A stretch of 44,541 nucleotides of DNA from NCBI GenBank assembly GCA_903928015.1, contig CAIYPF010000100.1, positions 1-44,541 of the forward strand, read 5' to 3'. The notes beneath the pieces were generated by a model, which did not search any database, was not told the DNA's origin, and worked only from the letters and a program-made list of their open reading frames with translations. The DNA comes from an uncultured Gammaproteobacteria bacterium (lineage in GTDB: Bacteria; Pseudomonadota; Gammaproteobacteria; Pseudomonadales; UBA5518). Within the stretch, counting starts at the first letter, position 1. The number at the start of each line of letters is the position of its first letter. The position numbers were made by a program, and so were the translations under genes. This document shows, one piece after another, positions 2,972-44,541 of the stretch.

Positions 2972-4909
2972 CTACGCGCCAGCCGGGCGCGCCGTCACAG
3001 CAGGCCCCGTAACACCATCGAATCCAAGCTCAAGCAAGGCCGAAATCTCGGCCTCGGTGCGCGCGCCCTCGCCTATCGCACTCAAACCTATCGAGTGGGC
3101 GATGATCGCAAGACCGCGCAAGAAGACCTGGTTCGCGGCGTTCTGTTCCAGTCCCTGCACGAACGAGGCATCGATTTTCATGTAATCGAGGCCGAGGTCG
3201 TGCAGCTGTCCGATACGCGATACCTGGTGCCCCACATGCTCGATGCCAAGGCGGCACCCGACGGGCTTCAGCAGCGCGCAAAGGACCCGGAACTGCTCGA
3301 TATTCTGGAACACGCCGTGCTCTGGAACCTCGAGCCACAGACGGCTCGCAATTTCGGGCATTCCCGCCAGACGGGCCGCAATACGGTGCAGCGTCACGGG
3401 GTCGCCCATGGCCTGCGCGGAGAGGTTCACGCACAGGGATTCCGTGCCGCCACGCAGTCGCTCCAGTGCAAGCCCTACAACGATTTCGTCCAGGCGCGGC
3501 CCGAAGCCCAGCCGGGATACCCAAGGCATGAACTCACCCGCTGCGAGCCACTCGCCATCCGCAGCGAGCCGGACGCGGGCCACACATTCGCTGTGCACTA
3601 CAGCACCCGATGCGTCGGTAACGGGATAGCTCTGCAGGCGTACATCGCCGCGCGCGAAGGCCTCTTCGAGTGATGTGCGCCAGCCGGGCAGCCCGCCTGC
3701 TCCCGATGCCTGCACCGGTGCAGCCTGCTCGGATGCGGCCACCTGTACCGGGTCACCGCTGTCCACCGCCGCGGCTAGCGCCGCGTCGACGCGCGCGAGC
3801 ACCGAGCCCATCTTCTCGCTGAAGTGATACGGAGTGGCGGCAGTCGGCATGCGGCACACCGCAGAGAGATTCAGTTCGCGCGCCAGCATGAGCATCGATT
3901 CGTGCACCGCGCGGGCAAGCGCCTGCGGGTCGGAAGCTCCCGGCGCAAGCACCGCAAAGTCTGATCCGTTCAGGCGGCCGAAATCCCATTCGGAGCCTTC
4001 GGGGGCCATCGCGCGCAGGGAGTCTGCAAAACGCCTGATAAAGCCATCCATCACCGACCAGCCTTCGTTGCGATTGAGTTCGGTGAGGTCTTGGAGACGG
4101 GCAATCAGCACTACCCCATCCGAACTCGCGTCATCGCGCTGCAGCACCGACTGAAGTCGCGCGATGAAATGCCCCCTGTTAAGCAACGCCGAGACCTGAT
4201 CGTAGTGGGCCTCCCGCCGCAGGTTGTCGAGTCGAAGCGACTCCTCCTCCAGCATCAGGCGTACGCGTTTTGTGAGCAGGTTCATCGAGCGCACGACTGC
4301 CTGGAACTCGAGGGTCCCTGGCTCGCGCGTGGTGATGAATCGGCGGGCGCCGATCGCCTCGGCCTGGGTTACAACATCATCAAGCGGACGGAGGATCACA
4401 CGCAGGAGGAAAGTGCCAGCAAGCCCGGCAAGCAGAGATGCAGCGAGGAACCAGCCGAGCAAGCGGGTGCTGCCGGCCCACAGCGAGGCATAGGCAAAAC
4501 GGGTGTGGCTCGCGATCTCCAGGGTGCCGTACTGCTTCCATCCGTCCTGGACCTGGGCTACCCCCGGGGCAACCTCGATCCTCAGCAGCTCGCGAAACCA
4601 GGCAGGTGCGCCCGGGTCACGGGCGTCGCTGGTGTACTCGACGATGACTTGCCCGCGCGGATCGATGAGCCGGATGTGCTCGTAGTTGCCCAGATCGAAC
4701 TGCGAGGAAAGCAGCAGCCCCACTTCCACTGGGTCCTTGGGCATCTGTCCCAGCACCGACGCGAGCGAATTGGCGTTGTCGAGGTTCTTGAGAGACAGCT
4801 GTTCCTCGAGGTAGCTCTTGGCCGAGAGGCTGCTCACCAGAAAACTGCCGCCGAAGGCGATGAGCATGAGTAGCGCGATGGCCAGCCACAGCTGCTTGAT
4901 CAGGGACAT
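2972..4909 (-). CDS. lapD: LapD-like c-di-GMP receptor (degenerate GGDEF-EAL)
   Basis: A 645-residue inner-membrane protein. TM1 is near residues 6-26, the periplasmic LapD/MoxY-type domain spans about 27-147 (DGWKQYG, W124, in the region corresponding to the conserved Trp of Pseudomonas LapD), TM2 is near 149-171, HAMP about 172-225, GGDEF about 235-390 and EAL about 410-640. Both enzymatic domains look dead: RLGGDEF is RLNGSDF (312-318), EAL is ECV (441-443), and DDFG is EHVG (557-560). That is the pattern of LapD, which binds c-di-GMP and sequesters LapG in the periplasm so that the adhesin stays uncleaved. Start 4909 (MSLIKQL) is chosen because GGAAGG lies just upstream and the N-terminus aligns with known LapD. 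An upstream ATG at 4948 overlaps the lapG stop as ATGA and is an alternative. Confidence 0.92.
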   Translation of the reverse strand: MSLIKQLWLAIALLMLIAFGGSFLVSSLSAKSYLEEQLSLKNLDNANSLASVLGQMPKDPVEVGLLLSSQFDLGNYEHIRLIDPRGQVIVEYTSDARDPGAPAWFRELLRIEVAPGVAQVQDGWKQYGTLEIASHTRFAYASLWAGSTRLLGWFLAASLLAGLAGTFLLRVILRPLDDVVTQAEAIGARRFITTREPGTLEFQAVVRSMNLLTKRVRLMLEEESLRLDNLRREAHYDQVSALLNRGHFIARLQSVLQRDDASSDGVVLIARLQDLTELNRNEGWSVMDGFIRRFADSLRAMAPEGSEWDFGRLNGSDFAVLAPGASDPQALARAVHESMLMLARELNLSAVCRMPTAATPYHFSEKMGSVLARVDAALAAAVDSGDPVQVAASEQAAPVQASGAGGLPGWRTSLEEAFARGDVRLQSYPVTDASGAVVHSECVARVRLAADGEWLAAGEFMPWVSRLGFGPRLDEIVVGLALERLRGGTESLCVNLSAQAMGDPVTLHRIAARLAGMPEIASRLWLEVPEHGVFQNIEQFRVLCALLKPVGCRLGIEHVGHQVSRIGQLHDLGLDYMKIDASFVQGLEQNAANQVFLRGLAIIAHSIGLSAIGEGARTEAEISALLELGFDGVTGPAVTARPAGA

Positions 4910-4947
4910 TCCGCCTTCCTCCGTAAAGATCACGCGGTCGCGCGACA

Positions 4948-5652
4948 TCAGTTTAGGCCGTCCGCCGACATCCGGCTAAGGAGGTCGCGCCAGCGGGACA
5001 AGCGAGCGTTGGGGTCCGCAACGGCAGGCCCGCGCGAGCCGGCCACCCACAAACCCTGGCTGTTGAAGCCGAAGATCGGGCGCAGATCCGTACGGCGCGA
5101 GGCAGGCCGCACTTCGCTCACGAGGTTGTCCAACACCAGCGGCTCGCCCTCGGGCGTCTCGTAATAGGCAAGCACCATATGGGCCTGGCTGAGACCACTG
5201 CCGGGCAGACCGAACTCCGCGCGCACGTAGGTGATGCGAAGCCGTTCTATAGGCACACCCAGCAGTCCCAGCGTGACGTACTTGCTGATGCTGTAGTCCT
5301 CGCAGTCGCCCTGGCCACGACCCAGGGTCTCCAGAGGCGTCGCCCAGTAATCAGCCTGCTTCCAGACGATCTGGTCATCCTCGAAGAGCACATGGCTGTT
5401 GAAGAAGGCGTTGACCAGCTCAAGGCGCTCACGCTCGGGCTTTGTCCTGGCTGATTCGATCATGCTGCGCCAGGCACGAAGGGTCTCCTCGCCCTGAGCC
5501 CCGTAACGCTCGGCGGCGAGAGCCACCACGCGATCGAGGTCGGGGGCGGCAGCGACGAGAACGGCAAAGAGCGCGACAAGCGGAAGGGCTATCAGTGCGC
5601 GCACTGAGCGGGAGACTGAACTGCGGATGATGCGGCCGGGAATGTTGGTCAC
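4948..5652 (-). CDS. lapG: LapG-like periplasmic cysteine protease
   Basis: A 234-residue bacterial transglutaminase-like cysteine protease. A basic N-terminus (residues 1-18) and hydrophobic stretch (19-36) act as an export signal. The catalytic triad is visible: C117 in GRGQGDCEDYSISKYV, H158 in QAHMVLAYY and D175 in VLDNL. LapG cuts the N-terminal retention module of LapA-type adhesins, usually at a di-alanine site, releasing them when LapD lacks c-di-GMP. The gene lies immediately upstream of the lapD-like gene on the same strand, as expected for a protease-receptor pair. The start is GTG at 5652 with no strong ribosome binding site; a GTG at V17 would still leave a signal sequence. The presumed substrate is the adhesin at the left end. 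Confidence 0.92.
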   Translation of the reverse strand: MTNIPGRIIRSSVSRSVRALIALPLVALFAVLVAAAPDLDRVVALAAERYGAQGEETLRAWRSMIESARTKPERERLELVNAFFNSHVLFEDDQIVWKQADYWATPLETLGRGQGDCEDYSISKYVTLGLLGVPIERLRITYVRAEFGLPGSGLSQAHMVLAYYETPEGEPLVLDNLVSEVRPASRRTDLRPIFGFNSQGLWVAGSRGPAVADPNARLSRWRDLLSRMSADGLN

Positions 5653-5727
5653 GTTGTGCCCGGATGCGCCCGCGCGCGACTGGATGTCATGGATGGAATC
5701 CGACTGGCTAACATCCGAGGGGGCCGA

Positions 5728-5733
5728 TATAGT
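5728..5733 (+). promoter_or_regulatory. Candidate -10 box upstream of tolC-like gene
   Basis: TATAGT lies 57 bases before the tolC-like ATG in the 138-bp divergent gap between lapG and tolC. No convincing -35 box is seen at the right distance, so this is a weak call. Confidence 0.25.
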
Positions 5734-5790
5734 TGCCCCGTCCGCTCATGGCCGACGGATTGCGGCTCAAGTATCGGGGACGGTTCGGTG

Positions 5791-7365
5791 ATGTTCAAGA
5801 AAAGCCTGTGGATAGCGCTGGCATCAGTGTCCTTCACGGTTGTCGCGCAGGAAGCGCCAACCCCGGGGGCTCTGGTGAGTCTTGTCGATGCAGCCCGGCA
5901 GAGCGTAGTCGAAAACCCCGAAGTCCTTGCAGCCTGGCACGAGTACGAAGCCGCATCCGAGCAGACGCGCGTCGCGCGCGGCGGGTATCTCCCCCGGGTC
6001 GACCTCGAAGCAGGCGTCGGCGAGGAACGCATCGACGACCCACGCTACGCCCAGAATACCTTCAGCCGGGACAGGGTCTCTGTCTCGCTCAGCCAGATGC
6101 TTTTCGACGGCTTCCGTACCCGCAACGAGGTGCGGCGCCTGAATCACGCCGCCAGAACCCGTTACTACGAGGTACTGGAGGCATCGGAGCAGGCGTCCGC
6201 AGAAACGGCACGCGCCTATTTCGATGTCCTTCGTCACCGCGGACTGGTCGAACTCTCCGAGGAGAACTACGCCACGCACCGCATGATCTACGACCAGATC
6301 GAGCGCAGGGTGCGCGCGGGCGTCAGTCGCCGGGTCGATCTGGAGCAGGTCTCGGGGCGTCTCGCACTCTCGGAGTCGAACCTCCTGACGGATGTGACCA
6401 ACCTCCACGACGTGAGCATGCGCTATCAGCGCGTTGTCGGTGAGATCCCCGCAGAGAAACTCGAGGAGCCCAGGATCGCTCCGGATCTCTTGCCTGGCTC
6501 GATCAAAGAGACACTGCAGTCCGCCTACCAGAACAGCCCTCTCATGAATGCGGCCATCGCCAACATGTGGTCAGCCGATGCCGCCACCGATGTTGCAAAA
6601 GCCGCCTACCTGCCGCGCTTCGACGTTCAGGCGCGCCAGGACGTCTGGCACGACAAGGACGACATCAACGGGCGCTACGAGCAAGGCATCGTGGAACTGG
6701 TGATGCGCTACAACCTGTACAACGGCGGCTCGGATTCCGCCGAAAAACGCCGCCTCATCGACAAAACCTACCAGGCCGTCGACATCCGTAACAAAACCTG
6801 TCGCGACATCCGGCAGGACGTGAGCATTGCCTGGAACAATACCCGGCGCCTTGAAGAGCAGAAAACCTACCTCGACCGCCACCAACTCGCCATCGAGAAG
6901 GCGCGCGAGGCATACAAGCGCCAGTTCGACATCGGACAGCGCACGCTGCTGGACATTCTGGACACCGAAAACGAGTACTACGAAGCGCGTCGGGCCTATC
7001 TGAACGCTGATCGAGACCACTCCATTTCCTACGCACGCACACTGGCGGGCAGCGGCAAGCTGGTCGCGGCACTCGGGCTGGGTCCGGATCTTCATCTGAT
7101 GGAACTGCCGCCCGGTTATGACGCGGCAAACCCCGACATGTACGCAATCTGTCCGCAGGAATCGGATGCGGCAATGTCCATCGACAAGGACAAGGTGTTC
7201 AGGGACGCGATGGAGAAGAGAGGCTACATGCAGCCCTCGCCGGCAGCGCAAACGCCGGCGGCCCCTCTTCCCTACATGAAGGGTGGTCCCGCGCCCGACA
7301 GCACCGCAAAACCCCAGGATCCGGCGGCATTGCCTGAAGAATCGCCGATGCCCCCGAAGTGGTGA
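5791..7365 (+). CDS. TolC-family type I secretion outer membrane protein (LapE-like)
   Basis: A 524-residue outer membrane efflux protein starting MFKKSLWIALASVSFTVVAQ, a signal peptide with likely cleavage after VVA. The start at 5791 is preferred because the longer frame to 5656 would bury the signal peptide. Family hallmarks are visible: LVDAARQSVVENPEVLAAW, LSQMLFDGFRT, RAYFDVLRHRGLVELSEENYATHR, the second repeat with YNLYNGG, and FDIGQRTLLDILDTENEYYEARRAY near the C-terminal helix. These place it with TIGR01844-type channels such as LapE/AggA. A Pro/Ala-rich tail (about 470-524) follows. It would form the outer membrane exit for the adhesin. It is divergent from lapG; no ABC ATPase (LapB) or membrane fusion protein (LapC) is found in the window. 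Confidence 0.92.
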   Translation: MFKKSLWIALASVSFTVVAQEAPTPGALVSLVDAARQSVVENPEVLAAWHEYEAASEQTRVARGGYLPRVDLEAGVGEERIDDPRYAQNTFSRDRVSVSLSQMLFDGFRTRNEVRRLNHAARTRYYEVLEASEQASAETARAYFDVLRHRGLVELSEENYATHRMIYDQIERRVRAGVSRRVDLEQVSGRLALSESNLLTDVTNLHDVSMRYQRVVGEIPAEKLEEPRIAPDLLPGSIKETLQSAYQNSPLMNAAIANMWSADAATDVAKAAYLPRFDVQARQDVWHDKDDINGRYEQGIVELVMRYNLYNGGSDSAEKRRLIDKTYQAVDIRNKTCRDIRQDVSIAWNNTRRLEEQKTYLDRHQLAIEKAREAYKRQFDIGQRTLLDILDTENEYYEARRAYLNADRDHSISYARTLAGSGKLVAALGLGPDLHLMELPPGYDAANPDMYAICPQESDAAMSIDKDKVFRDAMEKRGYMQPSPAAQTPAAPLPYMKGGPAPDSTAKPQDPAALPEESPMPPKW

Positions 7366-38602: not shown

Positions 38603-39832
38603 TCAGAGGAATGTCTGTACTTTGCGCAAGGCAGTGAAGAAACGCTCCACGTCCTCGTGCGTGTTGTATAGCGCGAAGGACGCACGCACCGTTCCGGGAA
38701 TCCCGAATCGCGCCATTGCCGGCTGCGCACAGTGATGCCCGGTGCGTACCGCCACCCCCTGACGATCGAGGAGGGTTCCGACGTCGTGCGGATGCCCGCC
38801 GTCGAGCAGAAAACTCAGCACGGCAACCTTGTGCGCGGCGCGCCCGACGAGGCGGAAGCCAGGCATGGCCCCGGCGAGTTCGAGCGCGTGCGCGAGCAAT
38901 GCGTCTTCGTGCGCGGCCATGGCCTTGCGGTCGATCCCGCGGAGATAACGCACCGCAGCACCAAGACCGACAGCGCCGGCAATATGGGGAGTGCCCGCCT
39001 CGAACCGGTACGGGAGGCCCGCATAGGTGGTGCGCTCGAAACTGACGGTCTCGATCATCTCTCCGCCACCTTGCCAGGGCGGCATGGACTCGAGCAGTTC
39101 CCGCCGACCGAAGAGACCGCCTATGCCCGTTGGGCCGTACATCTTGTGGCCGGAAAACGCGAGAAAATCCACGTCCAGGGCCTGAACGTCGACCTCGAGA
39201 TGGGCGACCGACTGCGCGCCGTCGATCAGTACCACGGCACCTGCCGCGTGAGCGCGCGAGATGATGTCCGCGACCGGATGAATGCTACCCATGGCATTGG
39301 AGACATGTTCCAGCGCCACCAGCCGGGTACGCGGCCCGAGCAACTGCCCGAAGGCATCCATGTCGAGTTCCGCCGTGGCCGTTACCGGGATCGGTACGAC
39401 ACGCGCGCCTGTCGCCTCCGCCGCCATCTGCCAGGGAACAATGTTCGAGTGGTGCGCCAGACCCGAGACCAGTATCTCGTCACCGGGCTGCAGGCGTGGA
39501 CGCGCATAACACTGCGCGACGAGATTGATCGACTCGGTGGTGCCGCGCGTGAAGATCAGTTGTTCCGGCGTGGGGGAATTGATGTATCCCGCCACCAACG
39601 CCCTCGCCTCCTCGAAGGCTGTGGTCGCGCGATCGGCAAGCAGGTGCGCACCGCGATGCACATTGGAATTGATGCGCTTGTAGTAGTCCTCGACGGCCTC
39701 GATGACCGCGAGAGGCTTCTGGGTGGTGGCCGCGTTATCGAGGTACACCAGCGGCTGCCCGTGCACGGTCTGCGCGAGCAACGGGAAGTCCGCGCGCCTG
39801 GCTGCCGCATCAAACGAGGCGGCGCTCGTCAT
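38603..39832 (-). CDS. sufS: Cysteine desulfurase SufS
   Basis: A 409-residue PLP-dependent desulfurase. PLP Lys230 is in FSGHKMYGPTGIGGL, catalytic Cys368 in RTGHHCAQP, and VYLDNAATTQKP, HRGAHLLADRAT and SGLAHHSNIVPW are group II (SufS) features. It turns cysteine into alanine and passes persulfide to SufE. The ATG at 39832 overlaps the sufD stop as ATGA. The in-frame extension to 40042 lies inside sufD and lacks homology. Confidence 0.96.
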   Translation of the reverse strand: MTSAASFDAAARRADFPLLAQTVHGQPLVYLDNAATTQKPLAVIEAVEDYYKRINSNVHRGAHLLADRATTAFEEARALVAGYINSPTPEQLIFTRGTTESINLVAQCYARPRLQPGDEILVSGLAHHSNIVPWQMAAEATGARVVPIPVTATAELDMDAFGQLLGPRTRLVALEHVSNAMGSIHPVADIISRAHAAGAVVLIDGAQSVAHLEVDVQALDVDFLAFSGHKMYGPTGIGGLFGRRELLESMPPWQGGGEMIETVSFERTTYAGLPYRFEAGTPHIAGAVGLGAAVRYLRGIDRKAMAAHEDALLAHALELAGAMPGFRLVGRAAHKVAVLSFLLDGGHPHDVGTLLDRQGVAVRTGHHCAQPAMARFGIPGTVRASFALYNTHEDVERFFTALRKVQTFL

Positions 39833-41108
39833 GTCAGCGCCTCCGGTGCACGGCTGCCAAACCACTCCCTCAAACCGGCATCCATAAGTGCCTGTACCGG
39901 CGCGAGCTCGACGCCGGCGAAGAGCGCATTGACGAAGCCGAAGGCAAGCAACACCTCTGCCTCCTCTCGGGCGATACCACGCGACTGCAGGTAATACAGG
40001 CTTTTTTCGTCGATGCGGCTGACGGTCGCTCCATGCGAGCACTTCACATCATCGGCGTAGATTTCGAGTTCAGGCTTGGTGTCCACCTCCGCCCGGTCGC
40101 TGAGCAGCAGGTTGCGGTTGGAAAGGTCCGCACTGGTCTTCTGCGCGCCGGGACGGATGAGAATCCGCCCGTTGAATACCGCACGCGCCTCGTCATCGAC
40201 GATGCCGCGACAGATCTCGCGCGTCGTGCAATGCGGAGACTCGTGCTCCACAGTGGTGTGGAGGTCGACCAACTGGCTGCGGCGCGCAAGATACACCGCA
40301 TCGAGTGCGGCATCGGCACCGGGCCCGCGGTGACGCAGCCGGACATCGAGGCGCTTCAGACGGGAGCCGGTCGCAAGAACAAAGCCGCGGTACGCGGACG
40401 CATCGCGCAGATCGACGTGCACGCCACCGATATGCACAGCCTCTTCGGCGTCGAGTTGCAGGCGGATATGACGCAGCTGCGCTCCGGGCTGCAGATCGAT
40501 CTCGGTGAGGCCCGTCACAAATGCCGCGGCGCCACCGGGAAAGTGCTCAACAAGCGTGAGTTCGGAACGCGCACCCGCAACCAGAAGCAGCCGCTGCGCC
40601 CATGCGCAACCCGCGGCAGCATCGTCACCGAGATGGACGACACAGAGGGGACGAGGCGCAATGGTGCCCTCCTCCAGATGCACGAGCACGGCATCTTCGG
40701 TCCAGCAGGCGGCAAGCGCTGCAAAGGGGTTAGCCGTACCCGACGCTATGGAACCGAAGCGCTCGCGCAAGTGTTCGGGCGCATCGGCCAGACGATGGAT
40801 CTGCAGGCCGGATACCGGCTCGACGCGCGAGGCCTCGGCGTCGAAACGCCCGTTGCGAAAGACCAGGTAATCGGCCTCCAGGCCGGCAATGCGGTGATCC
40901 ACCCCGCCACTGGCGTGCGGCGGAACACGCAGCCAGGATCCCGACTCCAGCGCATCGAGCGAGGTGTACTTCCACTCCTCGGTCTTGCGTCCGGGCCAGT
41001 CCGAGACAAGCCATGCGGCACGCGATGCGCGCCTCGCCCCGGAGAACCAATCGCCAGCGTCAGCGCCACCATAGAGCGCCGCAGCGGCCTGCCGGTCGAA
41101 GTCCCCCA

Positions 41109-41109
<1 letters not shown>
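39829..41109 (-). CDS. sufD: SufD Fe-S scaffold subunit
   Basis: A 426-residue SufD. SDWPGRKTEEWKYTSLDAL near the N-terminus and the C-terminal half with HGATVSRIDEKSLYYLQSRGI are hallmark features; the core is the beta-helix shared with SufB. It forms the SufBC2D complex and is needed for iron entry. It overlaps sufC by one base at the TGATG junction and sufS by four bases. Confidence 0.95.
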
Positions 41110-41873
<764 letters not shown>

Positions 41874-41953: not shown

Positions 41954-43390
<1,437 letters not shown>

Positions 43391-43401
43391 GGGCAGGTTC
43401 C

Positions 43402-43842
43402 TCAGGCCGCGCTGGCGGCAGCCTCGGCGCTGGCGCGGGCTTCGTGGCGCTGCAGCAGGTCGGCCAGAGTGATCCCGGCCAGAAAGCTCTGCAGATTCTC
43501 GCTGAGGTCGCTCCAGAGATGGTGCGTAAGGCAGGTATCGCCCTGCTGGCAATCCCCCCTGCCCTCGCAGCGGGTGACGTCGATGCGCTCATTAACGGCA
43601 TCGATGATCTGGGCAACACTTATGTCGGAAAGCGGCCTGCCGGCGCGGTAACCGCCGCCGGGCCCGCGGGCGCTGGCAACGAGTCCGCTGCGACGCAGGC
43701 AGGCGAAAAGCTGCTCGAGGTAAGACAGGGAAAGCCCCTGACGGGACGCGATATCGGCAAGCCTGAGCGGCCGCTGACCGGAATGCAGCGCCAGATCGAG
43801 CATCGCTGTCACAGCGTAACGGCCTCGGGTGGTGAGTTGCAT
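43402..43842 (-). CDS. iscR: IscR-type Rrf2 Fe-S regulator of the SUF operon
   Basis: A 146-residue Rrf2-family regulator. Cluster ligands C92, C98, C104 and H107 ([19 protein letters not shown]) sit at the same positions as in E. coli IscR; the helix-turn-helix is [29 protein letters not shown]. With a [2Fe-2S] cluster it would repress its own operon; loss of the cluster raises SUF expression. Start 43842 lies downstream of the candidate promoter, so the frame to 43908 cannot be translated from it. First gene of iscR-sufBCDSATE. Confidence 0.95.
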
Positions 43843-43877
43843 GGCGGCCTTGCCCTCATGGCGTTGGATCGGGCCGC

Positions 43878-43912
43878 AGTATAGCCAATACCCCACTACG
43901 CCGATCAACTAA
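43878..43912 (-). promoter_or_regulatory. iscR promoter and IscR type 1-like operator
   Basis: On the minus strand the 25-bp segment 43912-43888 has half-sites TTAGTTGA and TAGTGGGGTAT. Compared with the E. coli type 1 IscR consensus about 18 of 25 positions agree, with mismatches clustered in the centre. A -10-like TATACT is at 43878-43883 and a -35-like TTGATC at 43903-43908 (19-bp spacer), so the operator overlaps the -35 region. Predicted start is near 43871, about 29 nt before the iscR ATG. This implies autoregulation of the whole SUF operon. Confidence 0.65.
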
Positions 43913-43940
43913 AAACCCGAGTCCGTTACTGGGTCTTTTT
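43911..43940 (-). terminator. Intrinsic terminator upstream of iscR
   Basis: On the minus strand ACCCAGT and ACTCGGGT (one bulged C) form a 7-bp stem with a 5-nt loop, flanked by A5 and T5. It lies 8 bases after the stop of the right-edge gene, and its T-tract runs into the IscR operator. The A/T flanks make it bidirectional in principle. The most canonical terminator in the window. Confidence 0.75.
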
Positions 43941-43948
43941 ACCGCCCA

Positions 43949-44541
43949 TCAAGGCAATCCGAATTCAGGCCACTTGCCCAGCACATAGGTCTGGCAGTTA
44001 CCCCAGCCGGTGGCGCCGGTGTGATGATCGTGGACACGAATCAGGCAGTCGCGGAACTGGTTGAGGCGCGCGAGACTCTCCGGGCTGGAGCAATCCGCGA
44101 AGTACTCGCCCTCTACCTGCAGCGGCCCCCGCCAGGAGCCGTGATGCTTGCCGTCGAAACCATGGTAAAGGCCCGCACCCAGATGGAAGCCTGTCTCGCT
44201 CACGGCTTCGGCGGTCAGCAGACGTTCGGAGCCATCGGCCATCTGCACCCGGAACTCGCCACCGAGCAGCCGGAGCGTCGCCGGATCGAAGCGCAACCGG
44301 GGGCTCATCCCCACCAGTGGTTCCCTCCGCCCGTCCGCGTGCTCATAGCCTCCCTGGATCCGCTCGTGCCGGAAACCCGGGCCGCTGTAGTTCAGGTAGT
44401 ACTGGTGGAAGGCATACGTGGGGCCGTCGGGACGCTGGAAGTACAGCGGGTTCCAGACCGCGAGCGCGCTGGGAACACGTCCGTCCATCGGGTCCGGCGC
44501 GAGATCAGGGATCCTCACGCCAACATCCGGGCGAATCCCCC
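43949..44541 (-). CDS. Uncharacterised protein, 5' end outside window
   Basis: The frame is open to the right edge, so the GTG at 44518 may be internal; about 197 residues are visible. The sequence has no TM or signal peptide and is rich in aromatic and His residues: ALAVWNPLYFQRPDGPTYAFHQYYLNYSGPGFRHERIQGGYEHADGR, GAGLYHGFDGKHHGSWRGPLQVEGEYF, and RDCLIRVHDHHTGATGWGNCQTYVLGKWPEFGLP at the C-terminus. It resembles the beta-rich C-terminal half of large uncharacterised environmental proteins, but I cannot name the family. It ends 8 bases before a terminator, so it is not part of the SUF operon. Confidence 0.7.
   Translation of the reverse strand, partial: GIRPDVGVRIPDLAPDPMDGRVPSALAVWNPLYFQRPDGPTYAFHQYYLNYSGPGFRHERIQGGYEHADGRREPLVGMSPRLRFDPATLRLLGGEFRVQMADGSERLLTAEAVSETGFHLGAGLYHGFDGKHHGSWRGPLQVEGEYFADCSSPESLARLNQFRDCLIRVHDHHTGATGWGNCQTYVLGKWPEFGLP

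What the first reader, a model, noticed from the sequence alone, without database searches (positions are those of the whole stretch)
43878..43940. Terminator T-tract merged with an IscR-type operator
The intrinsic terminator of the right-edge gene ends in T5 that forms the first bases of the TTAGTTGA half-site, with the iscR -35 and -10 following within 35 bp. This packs termination of one gene and autoregulated initiation of the next into about 60 bp. A weak or conditional terminator would let upstream transcription reach the SUF operon and could be affected by bound IscR.
Basis: partly seen in the sequence, partly recalled or inferred. Interest (0 to 1): 0.5.

Follow-up and report, generated by a model that had tools for sequence, protein, structure and literature searches.

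The report
Tandem IscR operator resembling a terminator
The hairpin that looked like a transcription stop signal fused to an iron-sulfur regulator's binding site is better read as a second copy of that binding site, an arrangement already known from Pseudomonas aeruginosa.

Summary
The IscR site is solid: best match in the 4.27-Mb genome, and first in the window with a matrix trained outside the genus. The terminator is not: the strict scan found none, and a permissive scan found no more T5 hairpins in the window than in shuffles (4 against a mean of 3.2). The closest relative keeps the upstream gene (92%) but neither hairpin nor T-tract.

The hairpin coincides with a second IscR operator, site A (43913-43937), abutting site B without a gap. 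Two matrices trained outside the genus rank it 2nd and 1st of 44,517 positions. 66 of 112 related iscR promoters have a site A in this register (13 of 39 in an order-wide sample without the genus), as does P. aeruginosa, where A and B were footprinted. So this is a tandem iscR operator, probably autorepressing, before suf in a genus where no IscU was found. Site A doubling as a terminator is not excluded (about 0.25): its hairpin is the strongest of the 66.

The parts
43949..44539 (-). Upstream gene, Rv3169 family, 5' end cut by the contig end; stop codon 43951-43949
   Evidence: NF053593 104 bits, cutoff 150 not met; ORF
43911..43938 (-).
   Evidence: RNA fold -10.4 kcal/mol; not above shuffles by count
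43913..43937 (-). IscR operator site A, AAGACCCAGTAACGGACTCGGGTTT
   Evidence: Rank 2 with a symmetric B matrix and rank 1 with an A matrix, both trained outside the genus
43888..43912 (-). IscR type-1 operator site B, TTAGTTGATCGGCGTAGTGGGGTAT
   Evidence: Best in genome, top in window
43903..43908 (-). -35 element TTGATC inside site B
   Evidence: Sequence and comparison
43878..43883 (-). -10 element TATACT, 19-bp spacer
   Evidence: Sequence and comparison
43402..43842 (-). iscR (Rrf2 family)
   Evidence: PF02082; TIGR02010 best-scoring model, 193.9 bits, cutoff 207.55 not met
41954..43390 (-). sufB
   Evidence: NF008773 above cutoff
41109..41873 (-). sufC
   Evidence: TIGR01978 above cutoff
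39829..41109 (-). sufD
   Evidence: TIGR01981 above cutoff
38603..39826 (-). sufS
   Evidence: TIGR01979 above cutoff

Best explanation
The 60 bp are a tandem IscR operator in front of iscR-sufBCDS. Site B (43888-43912) overlaps the -35 and spacer; site A (43913-43937) abuts it directly upstream. Inferred mechanism, by analogy with P. aeruginosa: cluster-loaded IscR binds B first and A second, excludes RNA polymerase and represses its own operon; loss of the cluster under stress relieves this. The stem of the hairpin is formed by the two halves of site A, and the T5 is the junction of A's ...GTTT with B's TTAG. Shown here: operator sequence, register, recurrence in relatives, gene order. Inferred: binding, repression, control by the cluster.
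For: Site B: best in genome, top in window, present at the suf-linked iscR of 6 of 6 genus genomes. Site A: a symmetric matrix from 82 distinct B sites outside the genus gives the window's two best positions as 43888 (8.2) and 43913 (7.4), next -0.5; a matrix from 58 distinct A sites outside the genus puts 43913 first (19.4, next 5.6), and 0 of 20,000 shuffles of the 36-bp gap reach it. Offset -25 is special: 66 of 112 promoters score above 0 there, 0 or 1 of 112 in each of 13 control windows; 13 of 39 in the order-wide sample without the genus. With the A matrix, L002, L003 and L004 score best at the same offset (1.8, -0.6, -9.1). P. aeruginosa A (-67 to -43) and B (-42 to -18) are abutting 25-mers by DNase footprint, B primary (PMC6599224, passages). 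IscR ligand residues C92, C98, C104, H107 are conserved.
Against: Site A is degenerate: 15 of 25 to the E. coli consensus, a level reached or passed by 130 window positions, and 22 of 25 to the P. aeruginosa consensus, shared with 3 other positions. L005 shows no A and L006 only a weak trace; with the symmetric B matrix L003 and L004 fit best at -26, not -25. Only 5 of 17 suf-linked promoters have an A above 0. Site A does not in general make a stable RNA hairpin: mean -3.3 kcal/mol in the 66 A-bearing loci, weaker than their upstream control (-5.4), and 15 of 66 reach -5. The window's hairpin is the strongest of the 66, and stability plus T5 together occur in 0.12% of 6,000 GC-matched operator-model samples, so operator symmetry alone does not make this look likely and an added terminator role is possible. 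IscR is 13.7 bits under the TIGR02010 cutoff.
Confidence: 0.85

Rival explanations
1. Dual use: site A is an IscR operator and, in this species, also the intrinsic terminator of the upstream gene.
For: The gene stops 11 nt before site A; the hairpin is the strongest among 66 A-bearing loci; hairpin plus T5 is rare under an operator-only model (0.12% of 6,000). L004 has another hairpin 3 nt before a T6 at the same place, which my compact scan did not accept.
Against: L002 has the gene without hairpin or T-run. In L003 and L004 the T6 stands beside a divergent gene, so there is no evident codirectional gene to stop. Among A-bearing loci hairpin energy is the same with (-3.29, n=49) or without (-3.24, n=17) a codirectional ORF nearby, T-runs of 4 or more 5 of 49 against 1 of 17 (heuristic ORF test). 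The case was picked for its look.
Confidence: 0.25
2. One reading: a genuine terminator only, whose T-tract happens to overlap a single IscR operator.
For: Hairpin, T5 and position after a stop codon.
Against: The exact 25-bp register and two independent-of-genus matrices identify site A; hairpin not above shuffles by count and absent from the sister genome.
Confidence: 0.1
3. Neither: a degenerate stretch left from an ancestral site A, no longer bound, with a chance hairpin; only site B works.
For: Site A is weak or degraded in the other genus members and absent from 12 of 17 suf-linked promoters at score above 0.
Against: The window's copy scores 19.4 with the A matrix against a median of 26.2 for the training sites, and is first in the window.
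Confidence: 0.15

Closest known systems
P. aeruginosa iscR promoter, sites A and B (PMC6599224; abstract and passages seen)
   Same: Two abutting 25-bp type-1 sites in the same order, A upstream and B over the -35/spacer, in front of iscR.
   Different: There the operon is isc; here suf. Here the spacer is 19 bp, against 17 bp in 91 of 114 related promoters, and A is more G+C-rich and degenerate, with T5 at the junction.
E. coli iscR promoter type-1 sites (as described in passages of PMC6599224)
   Same: IscR autoregulation through more than one type-1 site.
   Different: In E. coli the sites are said to bind IscR independently and a minor site C exists; E. [quoted passage not shown]
Intrinsic (Rho-independent) terminators
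   Same: G+C-containing stem, 5-nt loop, T5.
   Different: Bulged stem, not kept in the sister genome, not above chance by count, and lying exactly on an operator.

Membership tests
IscR type-1 operator (site B) | 25-bp partial palindrome like ATASYYGACTRWWWYAGTCRRSTAT at iscR, overlapping the -35 | tested here: met
   18 of 25 matches, the window's best; matrix top hit; present in 6 of 6 genus genomes.
IscR type-1 operator (site A) | Second 25-mer exactly abutting B upstream, like the footprinted P. aeruginosa A | tested here: met
   Matrix ranks 2 and 1 in the window; but only 15 of 25 to the E. coli consensus, 22 of 25 to the P. aeruginosa one.
IscR type-1 operator | Binding and repression by cluster-loaded IscR | not testable with these tools
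   Needs footprinting and reporter assays.
IscR | Rrf2 family protein with C92, C98, C104, H107 | tested here: met
   Pfam Rrf2; ungapped alignment over residues 1-135 to 4hf1, a form with alanines at the three Cys positions; sequence.
IscR | NCBIfam TIGR02010 score above its cutoff | tested here: not met
   193.9 against 207.55 bits; still the best-scoring model. I therefore call it IscR-like in function, the name resting on the ligands, the operator and the operon.
Intrinsic terminator | G+C-rich stem directly followed by a T-run | tested here: inconclusive
   Stem with bulge and T5 present; strict scan 0; not above shuffles.
Intrinsic terminator | Kept with the gene it terminates | tested here: not met
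   Absent in L002, the one other genome of the six in which the upstream gene matches over all 189 residues.
Intrinsic terminator | RNA 3' ends at the T-run | not testable with these tools
   Needs Term-seq or in vitro transcription.

The most novel reading that the evidence does not exclude
Operator A has been recruited as the upstream gene's intrinsic terminator in this species: one 25-bp palindrome is read as a protein site in DNA and as a stop hairpin in RNA, so that IscR occupancy and upstream transcription influence each other at the head of what looks like the cell's only cluster-assembly operon.
Probability: 0.25. Interest if true: 0.45.

Novelty: new member of a known kind. Interest (0 to 1): 0.2.

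Why it matters
It shows that a tandem operator can pass for a terminator by eye, and that register in relatives separates the two readings. It also places the P. aeruginosa-type A+B promoter in front of suf in an uncultured Pseudomonadales genus in which no IscU was found, where this would be the autoregulated head of the only cluster-assembly pathway recognised here. If the dual use were true, it would be a compact case of one sequence serving a repressor and termination.

Tried and rejected
Terminator by energy and tail: permissive scans of the window give as many hits as shuffles (150 against 118-154 in 10 shuffles; 4 against a mean of 3.2 in 20), so a count cannot support it. Terminator by conservation: fails in L002. 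Bidirectional terminator: the plus-strand fold is weak (-6.1 kcal/mol, 70 of 200 shuffles as good), and the only plus-strand ORF listed as ending close by is one antisense to iscR. Site A as a terminator in general: hairpin strength does not follow the presence of a codirectional ORF. RNA element: no Rfam match at gathering score in the window. Attenuator of iscR: rejected, because the hairpin lies upstream of the promoter. Paper searches on terminators, promoters, operators and roadblocks listed 3, 0 and 3 papers, none about IscR by title; none was opened, and the library lacks most subscription journals. The E. coli consensus alone is too weak to see site A, which is why matrices were used.

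Rows dropped: of 131 loci with an IscR match, L031 (copy of L001), L059 (copy of L005), promoters with identical key stretches, loci with best site-B score under 8 (L039, L041, L042, L043) and, loci with too little upstream sequence were left out. That leaves 122, 112 or 114. The 66 of 112 is swelled by many Pseudomonas from one scan that kept its best 80; the order-wide sample without this genus gives 13 of 39.

Full report
SETTING. The window is the whole contig G000:C100 (44,541 bases) of an uncultured Pseudomonadales genome. On the minus strand the order is: a 5'-truncated Rv3169-family gene (43949-44539), a 36-bp gap to site B, iscR (43402-43842), sufB, sufC, sufD, sufS.

OBSERVATION. All letters are as described. 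The hairpin spans 43911-43938 (-10.4 kcal/mol, z -1.9); T5 is 43915-43911; TTAGTTGA starts at 43912. -35 TTGATC is 43908-43903 and -10 TATACT 43883-43878, 19 bp apart. The strict scan tool finds no terminator and no promoter in 42500-44541. My permissive compact-hairpin scan finds 4 T5 cases on both strands of the window, two being the two strands of this site, against a mean of 3.2 in 20 shuffles. The terminator call therefore rests on position.

SITE B IS AN ISCR OPERATOR. A degenerate type-1 pattern finds it as the best match in the 4.27-Mb genome, with 1 mismatch. A matrix from 82 distinct sites upstream of iscR outside this genus gives it 14.6 bits against 3.3 for the next of about 89,000 strand-positions. 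A site is present at the suf-linked iscR of all 6 genomes of the genus held here, with 14.6 to 25.9 bits. The window's is the weakest of the six and below the training median of 31.3.

THE HAIRPIN IS SITE A. Made symmetric, the same matrix puts 43888 (8.2) and 43913 (7.4) as the two best of 44,517 positions, exactly 25 bp apart, next -0.5. Over 112 non-redundant iscR promoters, offset -25 from site B stands alone: mean score -3.9 against a background of -38; 66 of 112 above 0; 0 or 1 of 112 in each of 13 control windows. In the order-wide sample without the genus it is 13 of 39. A second matrix, from 58 distinct site A's outside the genus, ranks 43913-43937 first in the window (19.4; next 5.6), and 0 of 20,000 shuffles of the 36-bp gap reach it.

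GENUS-MATES. With the A matrix L002, L003 and L004 score best at the same offset (1.8, -0.6, -9.1; per-position tail 0.00007, 0.00013, 0.0015); L006 is weak (-17.1, tail 0.013) and L005 has none. With the symmetric B matrix the picture is less tidy: L002 -11.0 and L006 -5.1 at -25, L003 and L004 best at -26. A footprinted P. aeruginosa site (nfuA) scores -11.9 with that matrix, so such scores do not exclude binding. Hairpins: L002 has no T-run and only another, weak pairing (-5.4); L003 folds to -10.7 through pairing of its T6 with no comparable stem; L004 has a different 5-bp hairpin 3 nt before its T6.

KNOWN PARALLEL. In P. aeruginosa the iscR promoter has site A (-67 to -43) and site B (-42 to -18), two abutting 25-mers protected together by IscR; B is high-affinity and primary, A secondary with a small effect on repression; the cluster is required (PMC6599224, abstract and passages). 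Window A and B match the E. coli consensus at 15 and 18 of 25; four P. aeruginosa sites scored the same way give 14 to 20. The IscR here has C92, C98, C104, H107 and E43 at E. coli positions, though TIGR02010 is 13.7 bits short of its cutoff.

MECHANISM. Most likely: cluster-loaded IscR occupies B, then A, and blocks the polymerase at the -35; loss of the cluster induces iscR-sufBCDS. Sequence, register and recurrence are shown; binding and control are inferred. In E. coli the position of the -35 within an IscR site decides between repression and activation, and adding 2 bp before the -10 of PhyaA left repression intact (PMC8561392: abstract, passages, section 10), so the 19-bp spacer here need not change the sign. 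That work concerned type II sites.

DUAL USE REMAINS OPEN. The window's A has the strongest RNA hairpin among the 66 A-bearing loci, whose mean is only -3.3 kcal/mol, weaker than their upstream control (-5.4); so operator symmetry does not generally give a stable hairpin, and a GC-matched operator-only model gives both the stability and T5 in 0.12% of samples. Against dual use: the case was chosen for its look; T6 at the same place in L003 and L004 stands beside a divergent gene; across A-bearing loci hairpin energy is the same with (-3.29, n=49) or without (-3.24, n=17) a codirectional ORF nearby; and L002 has the gene without the hairpin. I put dual use at 0.25.

HOW OFTEN. Of 122 promoters with site B, 3 (L001, L105, L125) have a compact hairpin of -5 kcal/mol or better with T4 or more ending within 15 bp of site B; in each the hairpin overlaps a site A.

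CONTEXT. No NifU_N/IscU match in any of the 6 genomes of the genus, with 12 of 14 control genomes positive; no HscA above cutoff in any of the 6, the sub-cutoff matches being presumably DnaK (that name is my inference). What is left of isc in the window's own genome is a second iscR followed by a cysteine-desulfurase-like ORF and an ndk-like ORF, both named by eye. The promoter of this paralogue lacks a type-1 site in 4 of 5 genomes. The suf-linked promoter is then the likely autoregulated head of cluster assembly. A survey of 139 Pseudomonadales genomes reports ISC in the large majority, with few SUF-only lineages (PMC11559095, abstract and section 12).

VERDICT. A new member of a known kind: a P. 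aeruginosa-type tandem IscR operator, here before suf. Interest 0.2.

Noticed in passing
L039 (G000:C41:8000-15000), 3985-6188; L040-L043: Relic of isc: second iscR, a desulfurase-like and an ndk-like ORF (by eye), with no IscU and no HscA above cutoff in the genus. Its promoter lacks the type-1 site in 4 of 5 genomes. Cluster ligands decay: L042 has none of the three Cys, L043 one out of register, both and L040 have Q for H107, L039 and L041 one extra residue between the 2nd and 3rd Cys.
   Followed up: partly
43878-43908; L001-L004: 19-bp spacer between -35 and -10 in four genus-mates and in no other of 114 promoters; 17 bp in 91 of 114. It comes from two extra bases before the -10 compared with L005 and L006.
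   Followed up: partly
L003 2043-2117, L004 2046-2108: The Rv3169-family upstream gene is reduced to a C-terminal remnant (25 residues in L003; a weak 21-residue match, E 0.18, in L004), next to a divergent SDR-like gene (named by eye).
   Followed up: partly
38603-39826: SufS scores highest with the family 2A encapsulin cargo cysteine desulfurase model (609 bits, cutoff 800 not met), while sufS TIGR01979 is above its cutoff.
   Followed up: no
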